NCBI RefSeq assembly: GCF_016756315.1
Contig: NZ_AP024235.1
Span: forward strand, 992,001 to 1,056,000
DNA: 64,000 nt
Source: Alteromonas sp. KC3
GTDB taxonomy: Bacteria > Pseudomonadota > Gammaproteobacteria > Enterobacterales > Alteromonadaceae
Reading direction: 5' to 3'
Shown here: positions 56,031 to 62,914 of the stretch, in pieces
Layout: the number at the start of each line of letters is the position of its first letter
How positions within the stretch are numbered: position 1 is the first letter of the stretch
The notes under the pieces: model-generated
What the model was told of the DNA's origin: nothing
Database searches by the model: none
Seen by the model: the letters and a program-made list of their open reading frames with translations, nothing else
Made by a program: the position numbers and the translations under genes

Positions 56031-56339
56031 ACTAACCTTTATAAACATCATTGGTATGGGCTTCACGTTTTGCAAAACCAAAGCTACCAAAACGAAACTG
56101 ATATTGAAGAACGTACTACGTACTATAGGTATAGTGTACCCCAAAATAGTAAGAGCGTGTTGACCTTTGCGGTACACGGTTCGCATATTTCATGCGAGTT
56201 TCAGGCAATAAACAAGGTACGTGGTTTGGTTATTCCAAATAAGCGCCTAGTGAAGTAGTATGACGCTCGCTTGGGTAAACCTTGCAAGCAGCTGCAAAAA
56301 CGTAGCACAAAGGTCAGCGCGTTCTATGGTAACTTCACA

Positions 56340-56912
56340 ATGACACTAACTATAACTGAACAATTAGATAATTTTGTATCATCTTATGTCGAGCTCGGTG
56401 AGCCGGACAAACTTGTTATACCTTACGATGAAGAGTGGCCTTCAGAATGTTACGTTGAAAATGAGCCTGGTATGGCGAGTAATCAAGGCAATAGCAAAGA
56501 AAGAGGCATGGTTGCATGGAGGCCAGTGCGTCAAACTGAGACACTTTCTTTTAGCAATGTTGAAGACGCAATGTCGCTTACTCTCGACCCGCAATACTGT
56601 GTGTTTTTCACTCGCTACTTTAGTGACAGTTTAAAAGCAACCGCTCCACAAGGTGAATGCGAACTTCTTCAAGTGTGGAATAAAGACGATTTTGTGCGAC
56701 TGCAGCAAAACCTCATCGGTCATTTATTGATGAAGCAACGTCTTAATCAAGCGCCAACTTTGTTTTTCGGATTAACAGACGAAGAAGATTTCATTTTGAC
56801 AGTTGTTAATGAGACGGGGGAAGTTGCTCTTGAACAGGTTGGTAAACCTGCACAAAAGATTCTTGCGCCGTCACTTGCTCATTTTATCGCTGACTTGAGC
56901 CCGAGGCTCTAA
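56340..56912 (+). CDS. syd: SecY-interacting protein Syd
   Basis: Soluble protein that binds SecY at the cytoplasmic membrane face. 190 residues; E. coli Syd is about 180. Conserved blocks: PYDEEWPSECYVE, GMVAWRPVRQT, YCVFFTRYFSDSL, LLQVWNKDDFVRLQQNLIGHLLMKQRL, and FFGLTDEEDFILTVVNETGEV. ATG 56340 is chosen; the frame extends to 56271. Its place between queF and the csrB-like RNA gene reproduces E. coli order. Confidence 0.95.
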   Translation: MTLTITEQLDNFVSSYVELGEPDKLVIPYDEEWPSECYVENEPGMASNQGNSKERGMVAWRPVRQTETLSFSNVEDAMSLTLDPQYCVFFTRYFSDSLKATAPQGECELLQVWNKDDFVRLQQNLIGHLLMKQRLNQAPTLFFGLTDEEDFILTVVNETGEVALEQVGKPAQKILAPSLAHFIADLSPRL

Positions 56913-58180: not shown

Positions 58181-58843
58181 ATGACAACAAACGCTTCTAC
58201 AAATGCAATAGCGCCAATTCATGAGAGCGTTAAAGCGGTCTATCTGTGTGTGGATGATCTGAAAGTCGCGGCATCGATTTTGTATAATGCCTATGTTGAT
58301 GACCCACTTTTTGTCGAGATCTTTCAAGCAGAAAAAGAAGGGTACGAAAGTCGACTTCGCTCAGCTATTCGCGAAGAATTAAATGCCTTTTGGGTAGCAG
58401 AACAACCCATGATTGGATTATTTGATGATGACCGTTTAATAGCCTTGGCGTGCCTTACCTCACCCGATGCTGCTTTTGGCTCTGGCCGTTACTGGCATTG
58501 GCGTCTAAGAATGCTATTAACTGCCGGTTTGTTTGGTACTAAGCAAATGCTTCAAAAAGAAGAAAAAGTGCGCGCATTGGTACCAGCAGACAACTTTCAC
58601 ATGCTGAGCTTTATTGCGGTCCACCCAGATTATCAAGATCATGGTTTAGGTCATATTTTGCTTGGCGCAATCGACAGCGTTGTTGACGAAGATAATAAGA
58701 GTGAGGGGGTGGCGGTCTTTGTCACAGTACCTAAGCATCGCTCTTTCTTTGGTGACGATAATTACAGCGTAGTGGGAAATCTGACGCTTTCTCATGTTAA
58801 TGGTGAAGTCATGTTTAGAGCGCAAAGAAAGTCATCTCATTAA
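58181..58843 (+). CDS. GNAT-family N-acetyltransferase
   Basis: 220 residues. Acetyl-CoA binding core FIAVHPDYQDHGLGHILLGAI (Q/RxxGxG/A form QDHGLG), followed by VAVFVTVPKHRSFFGDDNYSVVG, the usual GNAT strands. An N-terminal extension precedes YLCVDDLKVAASILYNAYVDDPL. ATG 58181 has GAGGAA upstream. Substrate unknown. It lies directly upstream of the csrB-like RNA gene with a hairpin between. Confidence 0.85.
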   Translation: MTTNASTNAIAPIHESVKAVYLCVDDLKVAASILYNAYVDDPLFVEIFQAEKEGYESRLRSAIREELNAFWVAEQPMIGLFDDDRLIALACLTSPDAAFGSGRYWHWRLRMLLTAGLFGTKQMLQKEEKVRALVPADNFHMLSFIAVHPDYQDHGLGHILLGAIDSVVDEDNKSEGVAVFVTVPKHRSFFGDDNYSVVGNLTLSHVNGEVMFRAQRKSSH

Positions 58844-58877
58844 CAGAATTTTCGTTCGCTTTTTGTACTTTCGGTCT

Positions 58878-58914
58878 CAGAAAAGTATGTTGGTGAGCGA
58901 CCAACACTTTTCTG
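58878..58914 (+). terminator. Hairpin downstream of the GNAT gene
   Basis: CAGAAAAG + TGTTGGT (58878-58894, with a 2-nt bulge) pairs with ACCAACA + CTTTTCTG (58900-58914); loop GAGCG. No good T tract follows, so its terminator role is tentative. Confidence 0.45.
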
Positions 58915-58948
58915 TATTCATCCCTTTCTCCCTAACGTCCCATTCGTT

Positions 58949-58966
58949 TGTAAGACATTTCCTACA
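58949..58966 (+). promoter_or_regulatory. GacA/UvrY-type upstream activating palindrome
   Basis: TGTAAG-ACATTT-CCTACA matches the GacA/UvrY consensus TGTAAG-N6-CTTACA with one mismatch. Its centre is about 178 bp upstream of the likely csrB-like start, a distance similar to the distal sites known for rsmZ/rsmY and csrB. Confidence 0.65.
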
Positions 58967-59123
58967 AAATATGTGAGTGATCTTACCTTTTTTTTGAAGT
59001 TTAAAATTATACTAAAGTATAAAGTGTTTGATTTTTATCGTTTTTTTATTCATTAGCCGAAAGTAGAAGAAAATAGTTCATTAAAATCGTGTAATTCCAT
59101 ATGGCGGTAATAATTAGAAGGGA

Positions 59124-59129
59124 TACTAT
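59124..59129 (+). promoter_or_regulatory. Candidate -10 element of the csrB-like RNA gene
   Basis: TACTAT is seven bases before G59136, where the RNA resembles the 5' end of E. coli CsrB. No good -35 is visible, consistent with an activator-dependent promoter. Confidence 0.45.
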
Positions 59130-59135
59130 GAACAT

Positions 59136-59691
59136 GTCACAGGGAATCACGACGAGTCAGGAAGATTTAACAGGGACGACCTAGGACAACTTAAGGATGA
59201 GAATCTCACAAGGCGGTGGGTACAGGAAAAGGAAACACAGCGAGGATGCTGTAATTACACGGATTTATGGACTGTAAGGGACTTAACGGATTAATTGAGT
59301 GACGGGATGTCACGACAGGATGTAGCAGGAAGCCAGAGTTCAGGACGAATTTGCACGGACGAGCAAACCAAGGAAGACATGAGGACACGCCAAGGATTGG
59401 TAAGACTGTAGCAGGAAGTACAGTGAAAAATGGAGCAACGGAAAGGACTGTCAGCGGAGTCTGACATAGGACAGCCCTAGGATGGGGAACGCTGTATGAA
59501 GGATGTACAGTAAGTCATGGAGAAATGGAAAGGGACCTACGCAAGGACGGGTAGCTCGCACAGGATGTCGCGAGATTAGAAGGAAAGGGGCGTATACGGA
59601 TTTTAATCGGGAAGATTTTAGTTGCAAGGGATCGCAGAGAGGGAAACTCAAAATTCCAAGAAAAAGGGGAACCGTTTGGTTCCCCTTTTTT
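59136..59691 (+). ncRNA. csrB: CsrB-family CsrA-sequestering RNA
   Basis: A 556-nt untranslated region with about 40 GGA triplets on the plus strand, many as AGGA or CAGGATG. At least six hairpins with different but complementary stems put GGA in the loop: 59237-59252 (ACAGC/GCTGT), 59299-59313 (GTGAC/GTCAC), 59406-59423 (CTGTA/TACAG), 59449-59466 (TGTCAG/CTGACA), 59492-59510 (CTGTA/TACAG) and 59555-59574 (CTCGC/GCGAG). The 5' end GTCACAGGGAATCA resembles E. coli CsrB GTCGACAGGGAGTCA. It lies between syd and yqcC as in E. coli, but with extra genes. A GacA/UvrY box upstream and an intrinsic terminator complete the unit. It should titrate CsrA. 5' end approximate. Confidence 0.93.
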
Positions 59692-59692
59692 A
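59661..59692 (+). terminator. Intrinsic terminator of the csrB-like RNA
   Basis: 13-bp stem AAAAAGGGGAACC (59661-59673) / GGTTCCCCTTTTT (59678-59690) with loop GTTT and a T run. Confidence 0.95.
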
Positions 59693-59759
59693 CCTATTTG
59701 TGGGCGAATAGTACGTACAGTCTGCGCACAATGATCTCATAGTACGTCACGCATTCTGC

Positions 59760-60062
59760 TTAAACACGATGCGGTGGGACTTCAGTGCGCACAATGCGTA
59801 ATCCAACCAACTCTACTTGTCCACTGTATCTATCCTCTCCATTACTGGAAAATTCGAAATTAAATGAACTATGCCAATCAGGTTTTCCATATTTAAACGA
59901 AAAGCGGGTTTTGGCGCGCGCGACGCTTAGCAGCTGAAGCTGATGTGTATTGCAATAGTGTGTTAAGTATTTATACGTGGCCTCTGAAATTGCGCGAATT
60001 CGCCAAAATTGATAAGCCGCAAATGCAATAACCAGCCAAACTACAAGTTCTAATAGCGTCAT
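59760..60062 (-). CDS. DUF3301 family membrane protein
   Basis: 100 residues: N-terminal helix (LLELVVWLVIAFAAYQFW, residues 3-20), then a soluble domain with HQLQLLSVARAKTRFSFKYG and a C-terminal YSGQVELVGLRIVRTEVPPHRV. Matches the DUF3301 family found next to DUF3549 and yqcC in Alteromonadales and Vibrionales. ATG 60062, one base after the DUF3549 stop; the frame extends to 60083. Function unknown. Confidence 0.82.
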   Translation of the reverse strand: MTLLELVVWLVIAFAAYQFWRIRAISEATYKYLTHYCNTHQLQLLSVARAKTRFSFKYGKPDWHSSFNFEFSSNGEDRYSGQVELVGLRIVRTEVPPHRV

Positions 60063-60063
60063 G

Positions 60064-61113
60064 TCACTTTCTCGCTTGAGCAAAGAGTTGATTGAATGCT
60101 TTCATCAGACTTTGAGAATGAGTAGAAGAATGAAGCAATGTCAACACTTGGCGACGTAACTTGGGGATCTGAACTAAGTCAGAAAAAAAGCCTGAAAATA
60201 GCGCGCCATTGTGCCCTTCTTTTTCGTCCACTTTCGCCGCCTGTTCTAAAAATGCTTCTAGCAGCACTTCATCCATTTGTTCGAAATGCCGTGCGGCTAT
60301 TACACTTAAAATATCTAGACGTGAAGATACTTCTTGTCTTAAAAGTGCAACTAATTGCGTATTAATGCGCTTAGAAAAAACATCACTGGAAAGTGCACGC
60401 AGAGCGCTAAGTGAGACATCACCGCTGTTTTGTAGACGTTCGATTGCAAATGTTTCTATCTGCTCTGGCAATGAGATGTTTTCACTCATCTCTAAGAAGG
60501 TATTGAGAAAAACGTCCGAATAAAGCGCCTTGTTAGTGCAAAACGCGCTAACGATGGCGTCATAGTGTTCGTGGCTTTTGAGACCGTGAACAAAGTCAGC
60601 GACACTTTGCATTGATATTTGTTGCCAATCGACTAATTGAGGCGCCTTTATATACGCTTCTACTTTTTGAGCATCTTCACTAAGTGGTTGTTTAAGTGTG
60701 TGTTTCACGAATGCGTTAAACTGAGCGAGTAGAGATTGACCAGGGACGAAGGAATACGGATTATCTGGTAGCGTTTGCGCTTTTTCAGAGTCGTCCGCGA
60801 CAGATTGCCCCAAAGCATCAACGATGATTTCTAAAAAATGATTTCGTGTGGCGGATACAACCAACCCTTGCTCATCAAGCGGTAACTTAATAAACCAAAT
60901 GTAATGCTGATTAGAAGCGCGTTTATTCCAAAAAACAATACCAAACCACGCATGCTGCTGACGAGGATAGGGGGCGTAGGCGCTGCCATTTTCAATATCT
61001 AAGAACTGTTGGCTATCAAGTGGGGTTAGTCTGCGACCCATGTCAAATACTTGATATTCTGTACCAGCGTGTAATAAAAACTCGCTGATTGAATTTATGC
61101 TATTGGCGCTCAT
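60064..61113 (-). CDS. DUF3549 family protein
   Basis: 349-residue soluble protein without signal peptide. The N-terminal block INSISEFLLHAGTEYQVFDMGRRLTPLD and HAWFGIVFWNKRASNQHYIWFIKLPLDEQGL is typical of DUF3549; the rest is helical and repeat-like, perhaps HEAT-like (e.g. RLDILSVIAARHFEQMDEVLLEAFL). ATG 61113 is chosen; the frame continues to 61188. Paired with DUF3301 downstream and divergent from yqcC, a neighbourhood conserved in related bacteria. Function unknown. Confidence 0.82.
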   Translation of the reverse strand: MSANSINSISEFLLHAGTEYQVFDMGRRLTPLDSQQFLDIENGSAYAPYPRQQHAWFGIVFWNKRASNQHYIWFIKLPLDEQGLVVSATRNHFLEIIVDALGQSVADDSEKAQTLPDNPYSFVPGQSLLAQFNAFVKHTLKQPLSEDAQKVEAYIKAPQLVDWQQISMQSVADFVHGLKSHEHYDAIVSAFCTNKALYSDVFLNTFLEMSENISLPEQIETFAIERLQNSGDVSLSALRALSSDVFSKRINTQLVALLRQEVSSRLDILSVIAARHFEQMDEVLLEAFLEQAAKVDEKEGHNGALFSGFFSDLVQIPKLRRQVLTLLHSSTHSQSLMKAFNQLFAQARK

Positions 61114-61210
61114 CGTGTATTCCGAAATTACTGCTAATGTTTTTGCTTTAAGGCGCAAGTTTATCACAGCTGTTGTTTTTTCTGACACGCCCAGCGAACT
61201 TTGTTTCCTA

Positions 61211-61219: not shown

Positions 61220-61281
61220 GCGCCGCAATTTTAGTATTTGAAAAAATTTGAAGTAAGCCGTTAAACGAGGTGACGTCGACA

Positions 61282-61641
61282 GTGTCTTATATTGCTTTAA
61301 GCGCAGCGCTTGATGTATTGGCAATTACAATGCAAAAGGCAAACTTGTGGCCTGAACAGGTGCCTACAAAAGAAGCATTGCAAAGTAGTGAACCTTTCGC
61401 AATCGACACCATGCCATTTGAAAGCTGGTTGGCATTTATATTTATTCCCAAAATGCGCATGATTGTGGATGAGAAGATGCCTATTCCACCGATGAATATC
61501 GCACCTGCCGCCGAGGTCTATCTTCACTTAACCAACGAAGACTCTGCGGGCAAAGGCGTTGTGGAACAATTGCAGCGAATAGATGCTATAGCGAAGCAAT
61601 ATCAGGTTAGCTTTAAAAATAGCGATGGGAAGTACAGCTAG
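61282..61641 (+). CDS. yqcC: YqcC family protein (DUF446)
   Basis: 119-residue small soluble helical protein of the YqcC/DUF446 family: ANLWPEQVPTKEALQSSEPFAIDTM, WLAFIFIPKMRMIVDEKMPIPP and IAPAAEVYL. No ATG is available; GTG 61282 is 11 bases after GAGG and is preferred, with GTG 61270 as the alternative. Its last base overlaps the truC GTG. Function unknown; the yqcC-truC-yqcA order is the same as in E. coli. Confidence 0.9.
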   Translation: MSYIALSAALDVLAITMQKANLWPEQVPTKEALQSSEPFAIDTMPFESWLAFIFIPKMRMIVDEKMPIPPMNIAPAAEVYLHLTNEDSAGKGVVEQLQRIDAIAKQYQVSFKNSDGKYS

Positions 61642-62393
61642 TGGAAGCGTTAAGTCTCAGTAGTGAAAAACTAAATGTGCTTTTTCAAGATGAGCATGTA
61701 GTGGCAATTGATAAACCGCCTGGCTTATTGGTGCATCGCAGCCCGATTGATAAACATGAAACAGTTTTTGCAGTGCAGACCCTTCGCGACCAACTTGGCA
61801 AACATGTTTACCCCGCTCACCGGTTGGATAGACCTACATCTGGCGTTTTGCTATTTAGTTTTAATTCAGAGATTGCTGCCCAGCTTGGCAAGCAAATGAT
61901 GGAAAAACAAGTGACAAAGACGTATCACGCTGTTGTTCGCGGCTTTGTACATAATACTGGTCTTATCGACTATGCACTAAAATATCGCTACGATAAAATT
62001 GCAGATAAACACAAACGCCCCCAACAGCCACCTCAGCAAGCAACTACTGTGTATGAGTCAATCGCACACTTTGAGGTGCCTGAACCAGTAGGCAAGTATC
62101 AAAGTGCTCGATATTCGTTAGTAAAGCTTCATCCTAGTACGGGGCGCAAACATCAGCTAAGACGTCACATGGTGCATATTCGTCATCCCATCATTGGTGA
62201 TACAACGCATGGCGACGGCAAACAAAACAAATTCGCAAAGGCATACTTTAATTTTGCTAACTTGGCCTTAAGTTGTACTCATATGGGCTTTACGCACCCT
62301 GTTACTGGCCAGTGGGTGGATGTGAATACGGGCATGCATCAAGAGATGCAAAGGCTAGTAGATACATTACAGCCATTTAAAATAACGAAGTAA
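61641..62393 (+). CDS. truC: tRNA pseudouridine(65) synthase TruC
   Basis: RluA-family pseudouridine synthase that modifies U65 of tRNAs, 250 residues. The catalytic motif HRLDRPTSGVLLFSF carries the active Asp; LHPSTGRKHQLRRHM and the preceding YHAVVRG strand are present. GTG start shares a base with the yqcC stop (TAGTG). Followed 71 bp later by yqcA. Confidence 0.95.
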   Translation: MEALSLSSEKLNVLFQDEHVVAIDKPPGLLVHRSPIDKHETVFAVQTLRDQLGKHVYPAHRLDRPTSGVLLFSFNSEIAAQLGKQMMEKQVTKTYHAVVRGFVHNTGLIDYALKYRYDKIADKHKRPQQPPQQATTVYESIAHFEVPEPVGKYQSARYSLVKLHPSTGRKHQLRRHMVHIRHPIIGDTTHGDGKQNKFAKAYFNFANLALSCTHMGFTHPVTGQWVDVNTGMHQEMQRLVDTLQPFKITK

Positions 62394-62464: not shown

Positions 62465-62914
62465 ATGGCGACATTAACGATAATCGCGGGCACGGTTTAC
62501 GGTAATGCTCAGCATGTTGCGGAGCAAGTTGAAGAAAACTTAGCACAGCAGGGGATAGACTGCGTTCTAGAAAGTGATCCTTCAGTTACTGACTTTTCAG
62601 ACGCCGACGCTCTACTTGTTATTACTTCAACCACTGGGCAGGGCGATGTGCCACCTAATCTAGAATTTGTTTTTTCTGACTTGAAGGATGAGTCGCCGAT
62701 GTTAACAGGAAAGCCATTTGCAGTGGCTGCATTAGGTGATAGCAGCTACGGGGAAAGCTTTTGTGGCGCAGGTAAGCAATTTCAAGCACTACTTAATGAA
62801 CTTCAAGCGACTGCCGTTGCAGATTTATTAGAAGTTGATGCAATGGAGACATTGGAGCCAGAGAAAGACGTGGTTGAGTGGGTGAATAGCATTAAAGATA
62901 AGTTAATCGCGTAA
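62465..62914 (+). CDS. yqcA: Flavodoxin YqcA
   Basis: 149-residue flavodoxin. FMN phosphate loop TIIAGTVYGNAQHVAEQV, 50s loop TSTTGQGDVPPNL and 90s loop ALGDSSYGESFCGAGKQF. ATG has AGAGG upstream. Electron carrier of unknown partner; in E. coli it lies next to truC as here. Ends in a bidirectional terminator. Confidence 0.95.
   Translation: MATLTIIAGTVYGNAQHVAEQVEENLAQQGIDCVLESDPSVTDFSDADALLVITSTTGQGDVPPNLEFVFSDLKDESPMLTGKPFAVAALGDSSYGESFCGAGKQFQALLNELQATAVADLLEVDAMETLEPEKDVVEWVNSIKDKLIA

What the first reader, a model, noticed from the sequence alone, without database searches (positions are those of the whole stretch)
59136..59691. Long CsrB-family RNA gene with about 40 GGA sites
The gap between the GNAT and DUF3301 genes is not empty. 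I count about 40 GGA triplets in 556 nt, six or more hairpins with different but complementary stems that expose GGA, a CsrB-like 5' end and a strong terminator. E. coli CsrB has about 369 nt and about 22 sites, so this one would be one of the largest CsrA sponges. Gene-based annotation would miss it.
Basis: partly seen in the sequence, partly recalled or inferred. Interest (0 to 1): 0.88.

Follow-up and report, generated by a model that had tools for sequence, protein, structure and literature searches.

The report
Enlarged CsrB sponge RNA in Alteromonas
This stretch is a non-coding RNA gene of the CsrB type, a sponge that soaks up the regulatory protein CsrA; it sits where E. coli keeps its csrB gene but is about one and a half times as long with nearly twice the binding motifs, and the standard RNA model misses it.

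Summary
Window 59136-59691 (+) carries 40 GGA on the sense strand and 2 on the other; the best of 2000 dinucleotide shuffles has 36. It has covarying GGA-loop hairpins, a terminator, a CsrB-like 5' end and no ORF beyond chance. Rfam CsrB scores 40.9 bits, under its 71-bit gathering score. Independent evidence supports csrB orthology: it lies between syd and yqcC-truC-yqcA like E. coli csrB; a GacA/UvrY box sits at -179/-178 (E. coli -183/-182); csrA and uvrY are present. A model of its 3' module hits 59 of 59 genus genomes. Both ends are fixed and the middle varies: 331-835 nt, 20-53 GGA, near-constant spacing (54 loci). Of 59 genomes 47 have one copy (28-53 GGA) and 12 have two or three shorter ones. 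It is large, not a record. In A. macleodii this is very probably the locus published as Aln1a-c, described as three highly expressed small RNAs (PMC5864184). CsrA binding and the full-length transcript remain untested.

The parts
59136..59691 (+). CsrB-type sRNA gene, 556 nt, 40 GGA
58949..58966 (+). GacA/UvrY inverted repeat TGTAAGACATTTCCTACA, centred at -179/-178 if the RNA starts at 59136
   Evidence: repeat-to-5'-element distance 175-188 nt in 54 of 54 loci; E. coli csrB repeat at -183/-182 in PMC4682653
58972..58977 (+). TGTGAG half-site 5 bp after the inverted repeat, as the TGTAGGAGA 5 bp after the E. coli csrB repeat
   Evidence: E. coli arrangement in PMC4682653
59124..59129 (+). -10-like hexamer TACTAT; no consensus -35 seen, which would fit an activator-dependent promoter (inference)
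   Evidence: conserved in A3; the sigma-70 scan found no + strand promoter
59136..59162 (+). fixed 5' element GTCACAGGGAATCACGACGAGTCAGGA; compare E. coli CsrB GTCGACAGGGAGTCAG
59163..59526 (+). middle part rich in GGA hairpins; its length differs between species
59237..59252 (+). GGA hairpin ACAGC-GAGGAT-GCTGT (covariation not tested)
59299..59313 (+). GGA hairpin GTGAC-GGGAT-GTCAC (covariation not tested)
59350..59367 (+). GGA hairpin TTTGC-ACGGACGA-GCAAA (91.4% of cells paired)
59405..59424 (+). GGA hairpin ACTGTA-GCAGGAAG-TACAGT
59449..59466 (+). GGA hairpin TGTCAG-CGGAGT-CTGACA (outermost pair not conserved; 87.5% of cells paired)
59475..59487 (+). GGA hairpin CCCT-AGGAT-GGGG
59491..59511 (+). 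GGA hairpin around CTGTA...TACAG
59537..59554 (+). GGA hairpin CTAC...GTAG
59555..59574 (+). GGA hairpin CTCGC...GCGAG
59605..59617 (+). GGA hairpin AATC-GGGAA-GATT (no pair changed on both sides)
59623..59636 (+). short GGA hairpin TGC-AAGGGATC-GCA
59527..59691 (+). fixed 3' module (153-169 nt in 51 genus loci) with CTCAAAATTC at 59647-59656
59660..59691 (+). intrinsic terminator, 14-pair stem ending in a T run; near-symmetric, so it may also end the convergent DUF3301 transcript (inference)
56271..56912 (+). Syd gene (csrB neighbour in E. coli)
   Evidence: PF07348, 185 bits
58181..58843 (+). upstream GNAT acetyltransferase gene
59760..60083 (-). DUF3301 gene, convergent
60064..61188 (-). 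DUF3549 gene
61270..61641 (+). YqcC-like (DUF446) gene
61641..62393 (+). TruC-like pseudouridine synthase gene
62465..62914 (+). YqcA-like flavodoxin gene

Best explanation
The region is the Alteromonas csrB gene. Phosphorylated UvrY (GacA) binds the inverted repeat at 58949 and activates a promoter with its -10 at 59124. RNA polymerase makes an untranslated RNA of about 555 nt ending at the terminator at 59691. Its roughly 40 GGA motifs, many in hairpin loops or single-stranded linkers, about 13 nt apart, bind CsrA dimers and keep them off target mRNAs. Shown here: sequence, conservation, covariation, promoter box, synteny, presence of csrA and uvrY. Inferred: transcription start, UvrY control, CsrA binding and titration. 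The extra length is a lineage-specific enlargement of the middle between a fixed 5' end and a fixed 3' module, which should raise the number of CsrA bound per RNA (inference).
For: 40 GGA against at most 36 in 2000 dinucleotide shuffles. Sub-threshold CsrB match, 40.9 bits at 59369-59696, with a second weak one, 16.6 bits at 59115-59357. csrB synteny. GacA/UvrY box at the E. coli distance, 54 of 54 loci. uvrY at 304.8 bits over a 280 cut-off, one csrA. Covariation: 16 pairs changed on both sides against 5.9 +- 1.8 in shuffles, 0 of 500 reach it; 20 of 31 pairs compensated in at least one of 37 sequences. GGA conserved 0.92 against 0.52 for other triplets. 59 of 59 genus genomes hit by the 3'-module model. 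In A. macleodii Te101, GGA-rich RNAs very probably from this locus gave most primary reads of non-coding starts (PMC5864184; locus match).
Against: Below the Rfam gathering score, as are 19 of 19 same-genus loci tested while E. coli passes. Whole-molecule folding is no better than shuffles, and GGA are less exposed than in E. coli CsrB. BarA-like kinase: best hit 599.7 bits, below the 890 cut-off. One of five covariation measures, further pair types, is not above shuffles (125 of 500), and the tested structure was drawn from the window's own sequence. No CsrA-binding or transcript data for this genome.
Confidence: 0.93

Rival explanations
1. The locus makes several short CsrA-binding RNAs (as Aln1a-c in A. 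macleodii Te101), by internal starts or processing, rather than mainly one long RNA.
For: PMC5864184 reports three non-coding transcription starts and three sRNAs from one 404-bp intergenic region; gene-order counts place it at this locus.
Against: A fixed 5' element at a fixed distance after one GacA/UvrY box in 54 of 54 loci, and a fixed 3' module with terminator in 51 of 52 loci searched for it. No + strand sigma-70-like promoter was found in 58840-59760, though that scan also misses the presumed main start. The published gap of 404 bp does not match the 995-nt GNAT-DUF3301 gap in the A. macleodii-like genome.
Confidence: 0.2
2. A small protein is encoded in or antisense to the region and the GGA richness is a by-product.
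For: Antisense ORFs of 58-66 aa exist in the window, up to 123 aa in a relative.
Against: In 22 of 22 loci examined the longest ORF on each strand stays within the range of 50 shuffles, and sizes differ between relatives; stems covary and GGA triplets are the conserved units.
Confidence: 0.01
3. The region is the 3' untranslated part of the GNAT mRNA with a chance GGA-rich composition.
For: Same strand as the GNAT gene, next to it.
Against: A terminator-like hairpin follows the GNAT gene (58888-58906, 7 pairs, modest T run); a conserved activator box and -10 lie between; GGA exceeds composition.
Confidence: 0.02
4. It is a sponge for a different RNA-binding protein, or acts mainly by base pairing.
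For: Binding was not measured here; similarity to the E. coli CsrB model is weak.
Against: csrA is present, GGA in loops is the CsrA motif (recalled; also stated in PMC5864184), and the positional relative in E. coli is csrB.
Confidence: 0.03

Closest known systems
E. coli CsrB (Rfam RF00018)
   Same: Same gene neighbourhood (syd, yqcC, truC, yqcA), UvrY repeat at nearly the same distance, similar 5' end, GGA hairpins and terminator.
   Different: 369 nt and 22 GGA against 556 nt and 40 GGA; 380.4 bits against 40.9 bits with the Rfam model; DUF3192, GNAT, DUF3301 and DUF3549 genes lie between syd and yqcC in the window.
Aln1a-c of Alteromonas macleodii Te101 (PMC5864184) and AltRN1 of A. mediterranea (PMC4223743)
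   Same: Same genus, GGA-rich, very high expression, assigned by the authors of PMC5864184 to a CsrA-B-C-like system; a gene-order count places Aln1 at this locus.
   Different: Described as three small RNAs from a 404-bp gap; the comparative data here indicate one longer unit. PMC5864184 says that its region was highly expressed in the A. mediterranea study; that AltRN1 is that region is my inference from both texts.
Pf1, Pf2, Pf3 of Pseudoalteromonas fuliginea (PMC9927453, PMC11882849)
   Same: CsrB-type RNAs of another marine gammaproteobacterium, with 25, 21 and 9 GGA by the 2025 paper (21 for Pf1 in the 2023 paper) and a putative GacA site for Pf1; Pf1 counteracts CsrA in an E. coli glycogen assay.
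   Different: Three genes, each with fewer GGA than this one.
CsrB1 and CsrB2 of Shewanella oneidensis (PMC3171408)
   Same: UvrY-dependent CsrB RNAs with TGTAAG-N6-CTTACA boxes.
   Different: Two genes of 420 and 421 bp as predicted; Northern bands of about 450 nt for csrB1 and about 700, 600 and 450 nt for csrB2.

Membership tests
CsrB/RsmB-type CsrA-sponge sRNAs | Many GGA motifs beyond chance on one strand | tested here: met
   40 against a shuffle maximum of 36 in 2000
CsrB/RsmB-type CsrA-sponge sRNAs | GGA shown in loops of conserved hairpins or single strand | tested here: met
   whole-molecule energy not exceptional
CsrB/RsmB-type CsrA-sponge sRNAs | No protein coding | tested here: met
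   ORFs within shuffles in 22 of 22 loci
CsrB/RsmB-type CsrA-sponge sRNAs | GacA/UvrY inverted repeat far upstream | tested here: met
   E. coli reference in PMC4682653
CsrB/RsmB-type CsrA-sponge sRNAs | Intrinsic terminator | tested here: met
CsrB/RsmB-type CsrA-sponge sRNAs | csrA and uvrY in the same genome | tested here: met
CsrB/RsmB-type CsrA-sponge sRNAs | BarA sensor kinase in the same genome | tested here: inconclusive
   best hit 599.7 bits, below the 890 cut-off
CsrB/RsmB-type CsrA-sponge sRNAs | Binds and titrates CsrA; transcript abundant and UvrY-dependent | not testable with these tools
   only indirect: Aln1 expression in PMC5864184
Ortholog of E. coli csrB | Between syd and yqcC-truC-yqcA | tested here: met
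   other genes are inserted in between in the window
Rfam RF00018 as curated | Score at or above 71 bits | tested here: not met
   40.9 bits; 0 of 19 same-genus loci reach it, while 67 of 197 genomes of the order do. So it is not filed under RF00018 as curated; the threshold is a detection setting, not a biological feature (inference)

The most novel reading that the evidence does not exclude
Alteromonas CsrB is an accordion sponge: both ends (activator distance, 5' element, about 165-nt 3' module) are held fixed while the middle grows or shrinks at near-constant GGA spacing (13.5 +- 0.8 nt), so CsrA-binding capacity is tuned by length. Total capacity per genome is kept in one range either by one long copy (47 genomes, 28-53 GGA) or by two or three short copies (12 genomes, totals 38-79), so length and copy number replace each other.
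Probability: 0.3. Interest if true: 0.65.

Novelty: new member of a known kind. Interest (0 to 1): 0.45.

Why it matters
If it is the Aln1 locus, it is among the most highly expressed genes of a common marine genus (PMC5864184), yet Rfam at its own threshold misses it in 19 of 19 same-genus loci tested. A covariance model of the 3' module finds it in 59 of 59 genus genomes, so it can be annotated. The natural series from 20 to 53 GGA with fixed ends offers a ready test of how sponge size sets CsrA titration, and of whether length can replace gene copies.

Tried and rejected
Rejected: protein gene, chance composition, GNAT 3' UTR, recent tandem duplication as the source of the extra length (no direct repeat of 14 nt or more in the window array). 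Whole-molecule folding energy gave no support. An IHF site between box and promoter, as proposed for E. coli csrB, was not established: 36 of 54 loci have a site with at most one mismatch against 24 of 54 shuffled. A second sponge of this type in the same genome was not found: the next R1 hit has 29.6 bits, and the seven fetched weak-hit loci (L098-L104) hold no GGA cluster; a sequence-unrelated sponge is not excluded. 'Constant total capacity' is weakened by phylogeny: all 12 multi-copy genomes have DUF3301 identity of 51% or less to the window (one single-copy genome, G028, also has 51%), so there may be few independent events; their totals (median 47) also differ from the single-copy values (median 41; p = 0.002); and 18 of 22 fetched loci from other genera of the family hold an array of only 18-26 GGA, copy number there not examined further. 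Two of the 29 multi-copy loci gave incomplete counts, 13 (no box found) and 9 (contig end), and both were kept in the totals. My regex found the 5' end in only 4 of 54 loci and was replaced by mismatch scoring. Dropped before counts: L002-L009 (contig lengths equal those of G-handle loci already counted), L010 (the window's own locus), and L021, L057, L064-L066 (contig ends, or array not beside DUF3301); their five genomes were recovered by the model. In one search L040 and L045 were also left out (3' element not recognised) and L042 gave no module start. A1 holds 16 and A2 37 chosen sequences, not every locus.

Full report
Observation. The 556 bases at 59136-59691 hold 40 GGA on the + strand and 2 on the - strand. 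Shuffles give 18.7 +- 3.3 (mononucleotide, max 31 of 2000) and 24.1 +- 3.1 (dinucleotide, max 36 of 2000); elsewhere in the window the densest + strand stretch of equal length has 12. GGA-loop hairpin counts are 27 against 6.7 +- 3.8 in 300 shuffles, nested variants of one hairpin counted apart. GGA triplets are more exposed than others (0.53 against 0.31; that difference in 100 shuffles is 0.075 +- 0.048), though less than in E. coli CsrB (0.70 against 0.23). The terminator is at 59660-59691. The whole molecule does not fold better than shuffles (z -0.92), while the antisense strand does (z -3.71), so global energy is no argument for the RNA.

Identity. The window's genus is Alteromonas: eight named Alteromonas contigs have the same lengths as contigs of genomes listed as same genus. 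Rfam at gathering scores finds nothing in the window. With relaxed thresholds on 58840-59760 CsrB is the best family, 40.9 bits over 59369-59696 and, weakly, 16.6 bits over 59115-59357. Of 20 loci scanned at gathering scores, the E. coli control passes with 380.4 bits and 0 of the 19 same-genus loci pass. Whole-genome RF00018 searches also miss it, although 67 of 197 genomes of the order have a match over the cut-off and one of the four same-genus genomes sampled there, G051, has a weak one (E 4.8e-6). Position is independent evidence: the window has Syd, then (after other genes) the sRNA, then DUF446/YqcC, a TruC-like synthase and a flavodoxin; E. coli has syd, csrB, yqcC, truC, yqcA.

Promoter. 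An 18-bp repeat TGTAAGACATTTCCTACA lies at 58949-58966, centred 179/178 nt before 59136. PMC4682653 (passages read) places the UvrY repeat of E. coli csrB at -183/-182 with a second TGTAGGAGA 5 bp downstream; the window has TGTGAG 5 bp downstream. In 54 of 54 genus loci examined the repeat starts 175-188 nt before the 5' element, median 187. A -10-like TACTAT ends 6 nt before 59136. UvrY is in the genome over its cut-off and CsrA once; a BarA-like kinase is only a sub-cut-off hit.

Conservation. An alignment of the 3' 347 nt with 15 chosen relatives (A1) keeps 97.0% of cells paired in ten helices; 16 pairs change on both sides against 5.9 +- 1.8 in shuffles, with 0 of 500 reaching that; slid controls pair 34-51%. 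The structure was read from the window sequence, which favours it, and one of five measures (further pair types) is not above shuffles. Over 37 chosen genus sequences of the 3' module, 20 of 31 predicted pairs are compensated in at least one sequence. GGA is the best conserved triplet among those occurring at least 4 times, 0.92 against 0.52 for other triplets in A1 and 0.80 against 0.44 in A2. ORFs stay within 50 shuffles in 22 of 22 loci.

Distribution. A covariance model of the 3' module gives one strong hit in the window's genome (175 bits), the next being 29.6 bits without GGA cluster. It hits 59 of 59 genus genomes at E <= 1e-8 (37 of these loci built the model), and 71 of 196 family genomes at E <= 0.001, weak ones not inspected.

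Size. In 54 loci, one per genome, the RNA from 5' element to T run is 331-835 nt with 20-53 GGA, mean spacing 13.5 +- 0.8 nt; length and GGA correlate (rho 0.95), and GGA falls with distance from the window species (rho 0.79 with DUF3301 identity; not corrected for phylogeny). The 3' module measures 153-169 nt in 51 of the 52 loci searched for it. Of 22 fetched, best-scoring loci from other genera of the family, 18 have 18-26 GGA and 4 have 31-47. Of the 30 fetched, best-scoring CsrB loci in the order, 7 have 35-43 GGA. E. coli CsrB has 22 in 369 nt. So this gene is large, not unique, and the long form looks derived within the family (inference from the best-scoring loci only).

Copy number. 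47 of 59 genus genomes have one copy (28-53 GGA, median 41); 12 have two or three (29 copies, per copy median 23, totals 38-79, median 47); an activator box with 5' element was found for 27 of the 29. These 12 are all at 51% DUF3301 identity or less, so this may be one historical event.

Literature. PMC5864184 (section 15 read whole, other passages) describes Aln1a-c in A. macleodii Te101: three GGA-rich sRNAs from a 404-bp gap between TE101_04650 and TE101_04655, with csrA at TE101_05290; about 87% of primary reads came from non-coding starts, most of them from this gap. In G021, a genome whose length I recall as that of A. macleodii ATCC 27126, the only GGA cluster found in 880-1200 kb is this locus, and 126 ORFs of 100 aa or more (131 of 80 or more, 137 of 60 or more) lie between it and csrA, against 127 tags if tags step by 5. 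I therefore take Aln1a-c to be this locus with high probability. Against it: the GNAT-DUF3301 gap in G021 is 995 nt, not 404. PMC4223743 (passages) reported AltRN1, without database match and expressed like ribosomal genes; PMC5864184 cites that study for high expression of its region. My searches listed no other paper on a CsrB-type RNA of Alteromonas, and I saw no description of a full-length unit, its csrB synteny or its size series in what I read; figures and supplements could not be read. PMC9927453, PMC11882849 and PMC3171408 were read as passages only; other papers only as search listings.

Verdict. A CsrB ortholog acting as a CsrA sponge is the explanation by a wide margin; the molecule is not new in kind. 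What is added here is its boundaries, the evidence of csrB orthology, the failure of the curated model on this genus, and the fixed-ends, variable-middle, variable-copy pattern.

Noticed in passing
L176-L204: Twelve divergent genus members carry two or three separate csrB-type genes, 27 of 29 with a GacA/UvrY box; one type starts GTCACA, the other GTCGCA or GTTGCA.
   Followed up: partly
window 59007-59022: Perfect 7-bp inverted repeat TTATACT-AA-AGTATAA, 114-129 nt before the RNA start, largely kept in close relatives; possibly another regulator site, function unknown.
   Followed up: no
L049, L053, L054: Activator box 175 nt instead of about 187 nt before the 5' element, 12 nt or roughly one helical turn shorter.
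   Followed up: no
L152, L161, L164, L165, L169, L171-L173 (other families of the order): Two GGA arrays near each other in one locus, i.e. probable neighbouring csrB copies.
   Followed up: no
window 59136-59691, - strand: The antisense strand folds much better than shuffles (z -3.71) while the sense strand does not; unexplained beyond GGA sites being kept unpaired.
   Followed up: no
G024:C1:3295722-3295820: Weak second CsrA-like match (23 bits, below cut-off) in one relative.
   Followed up: no
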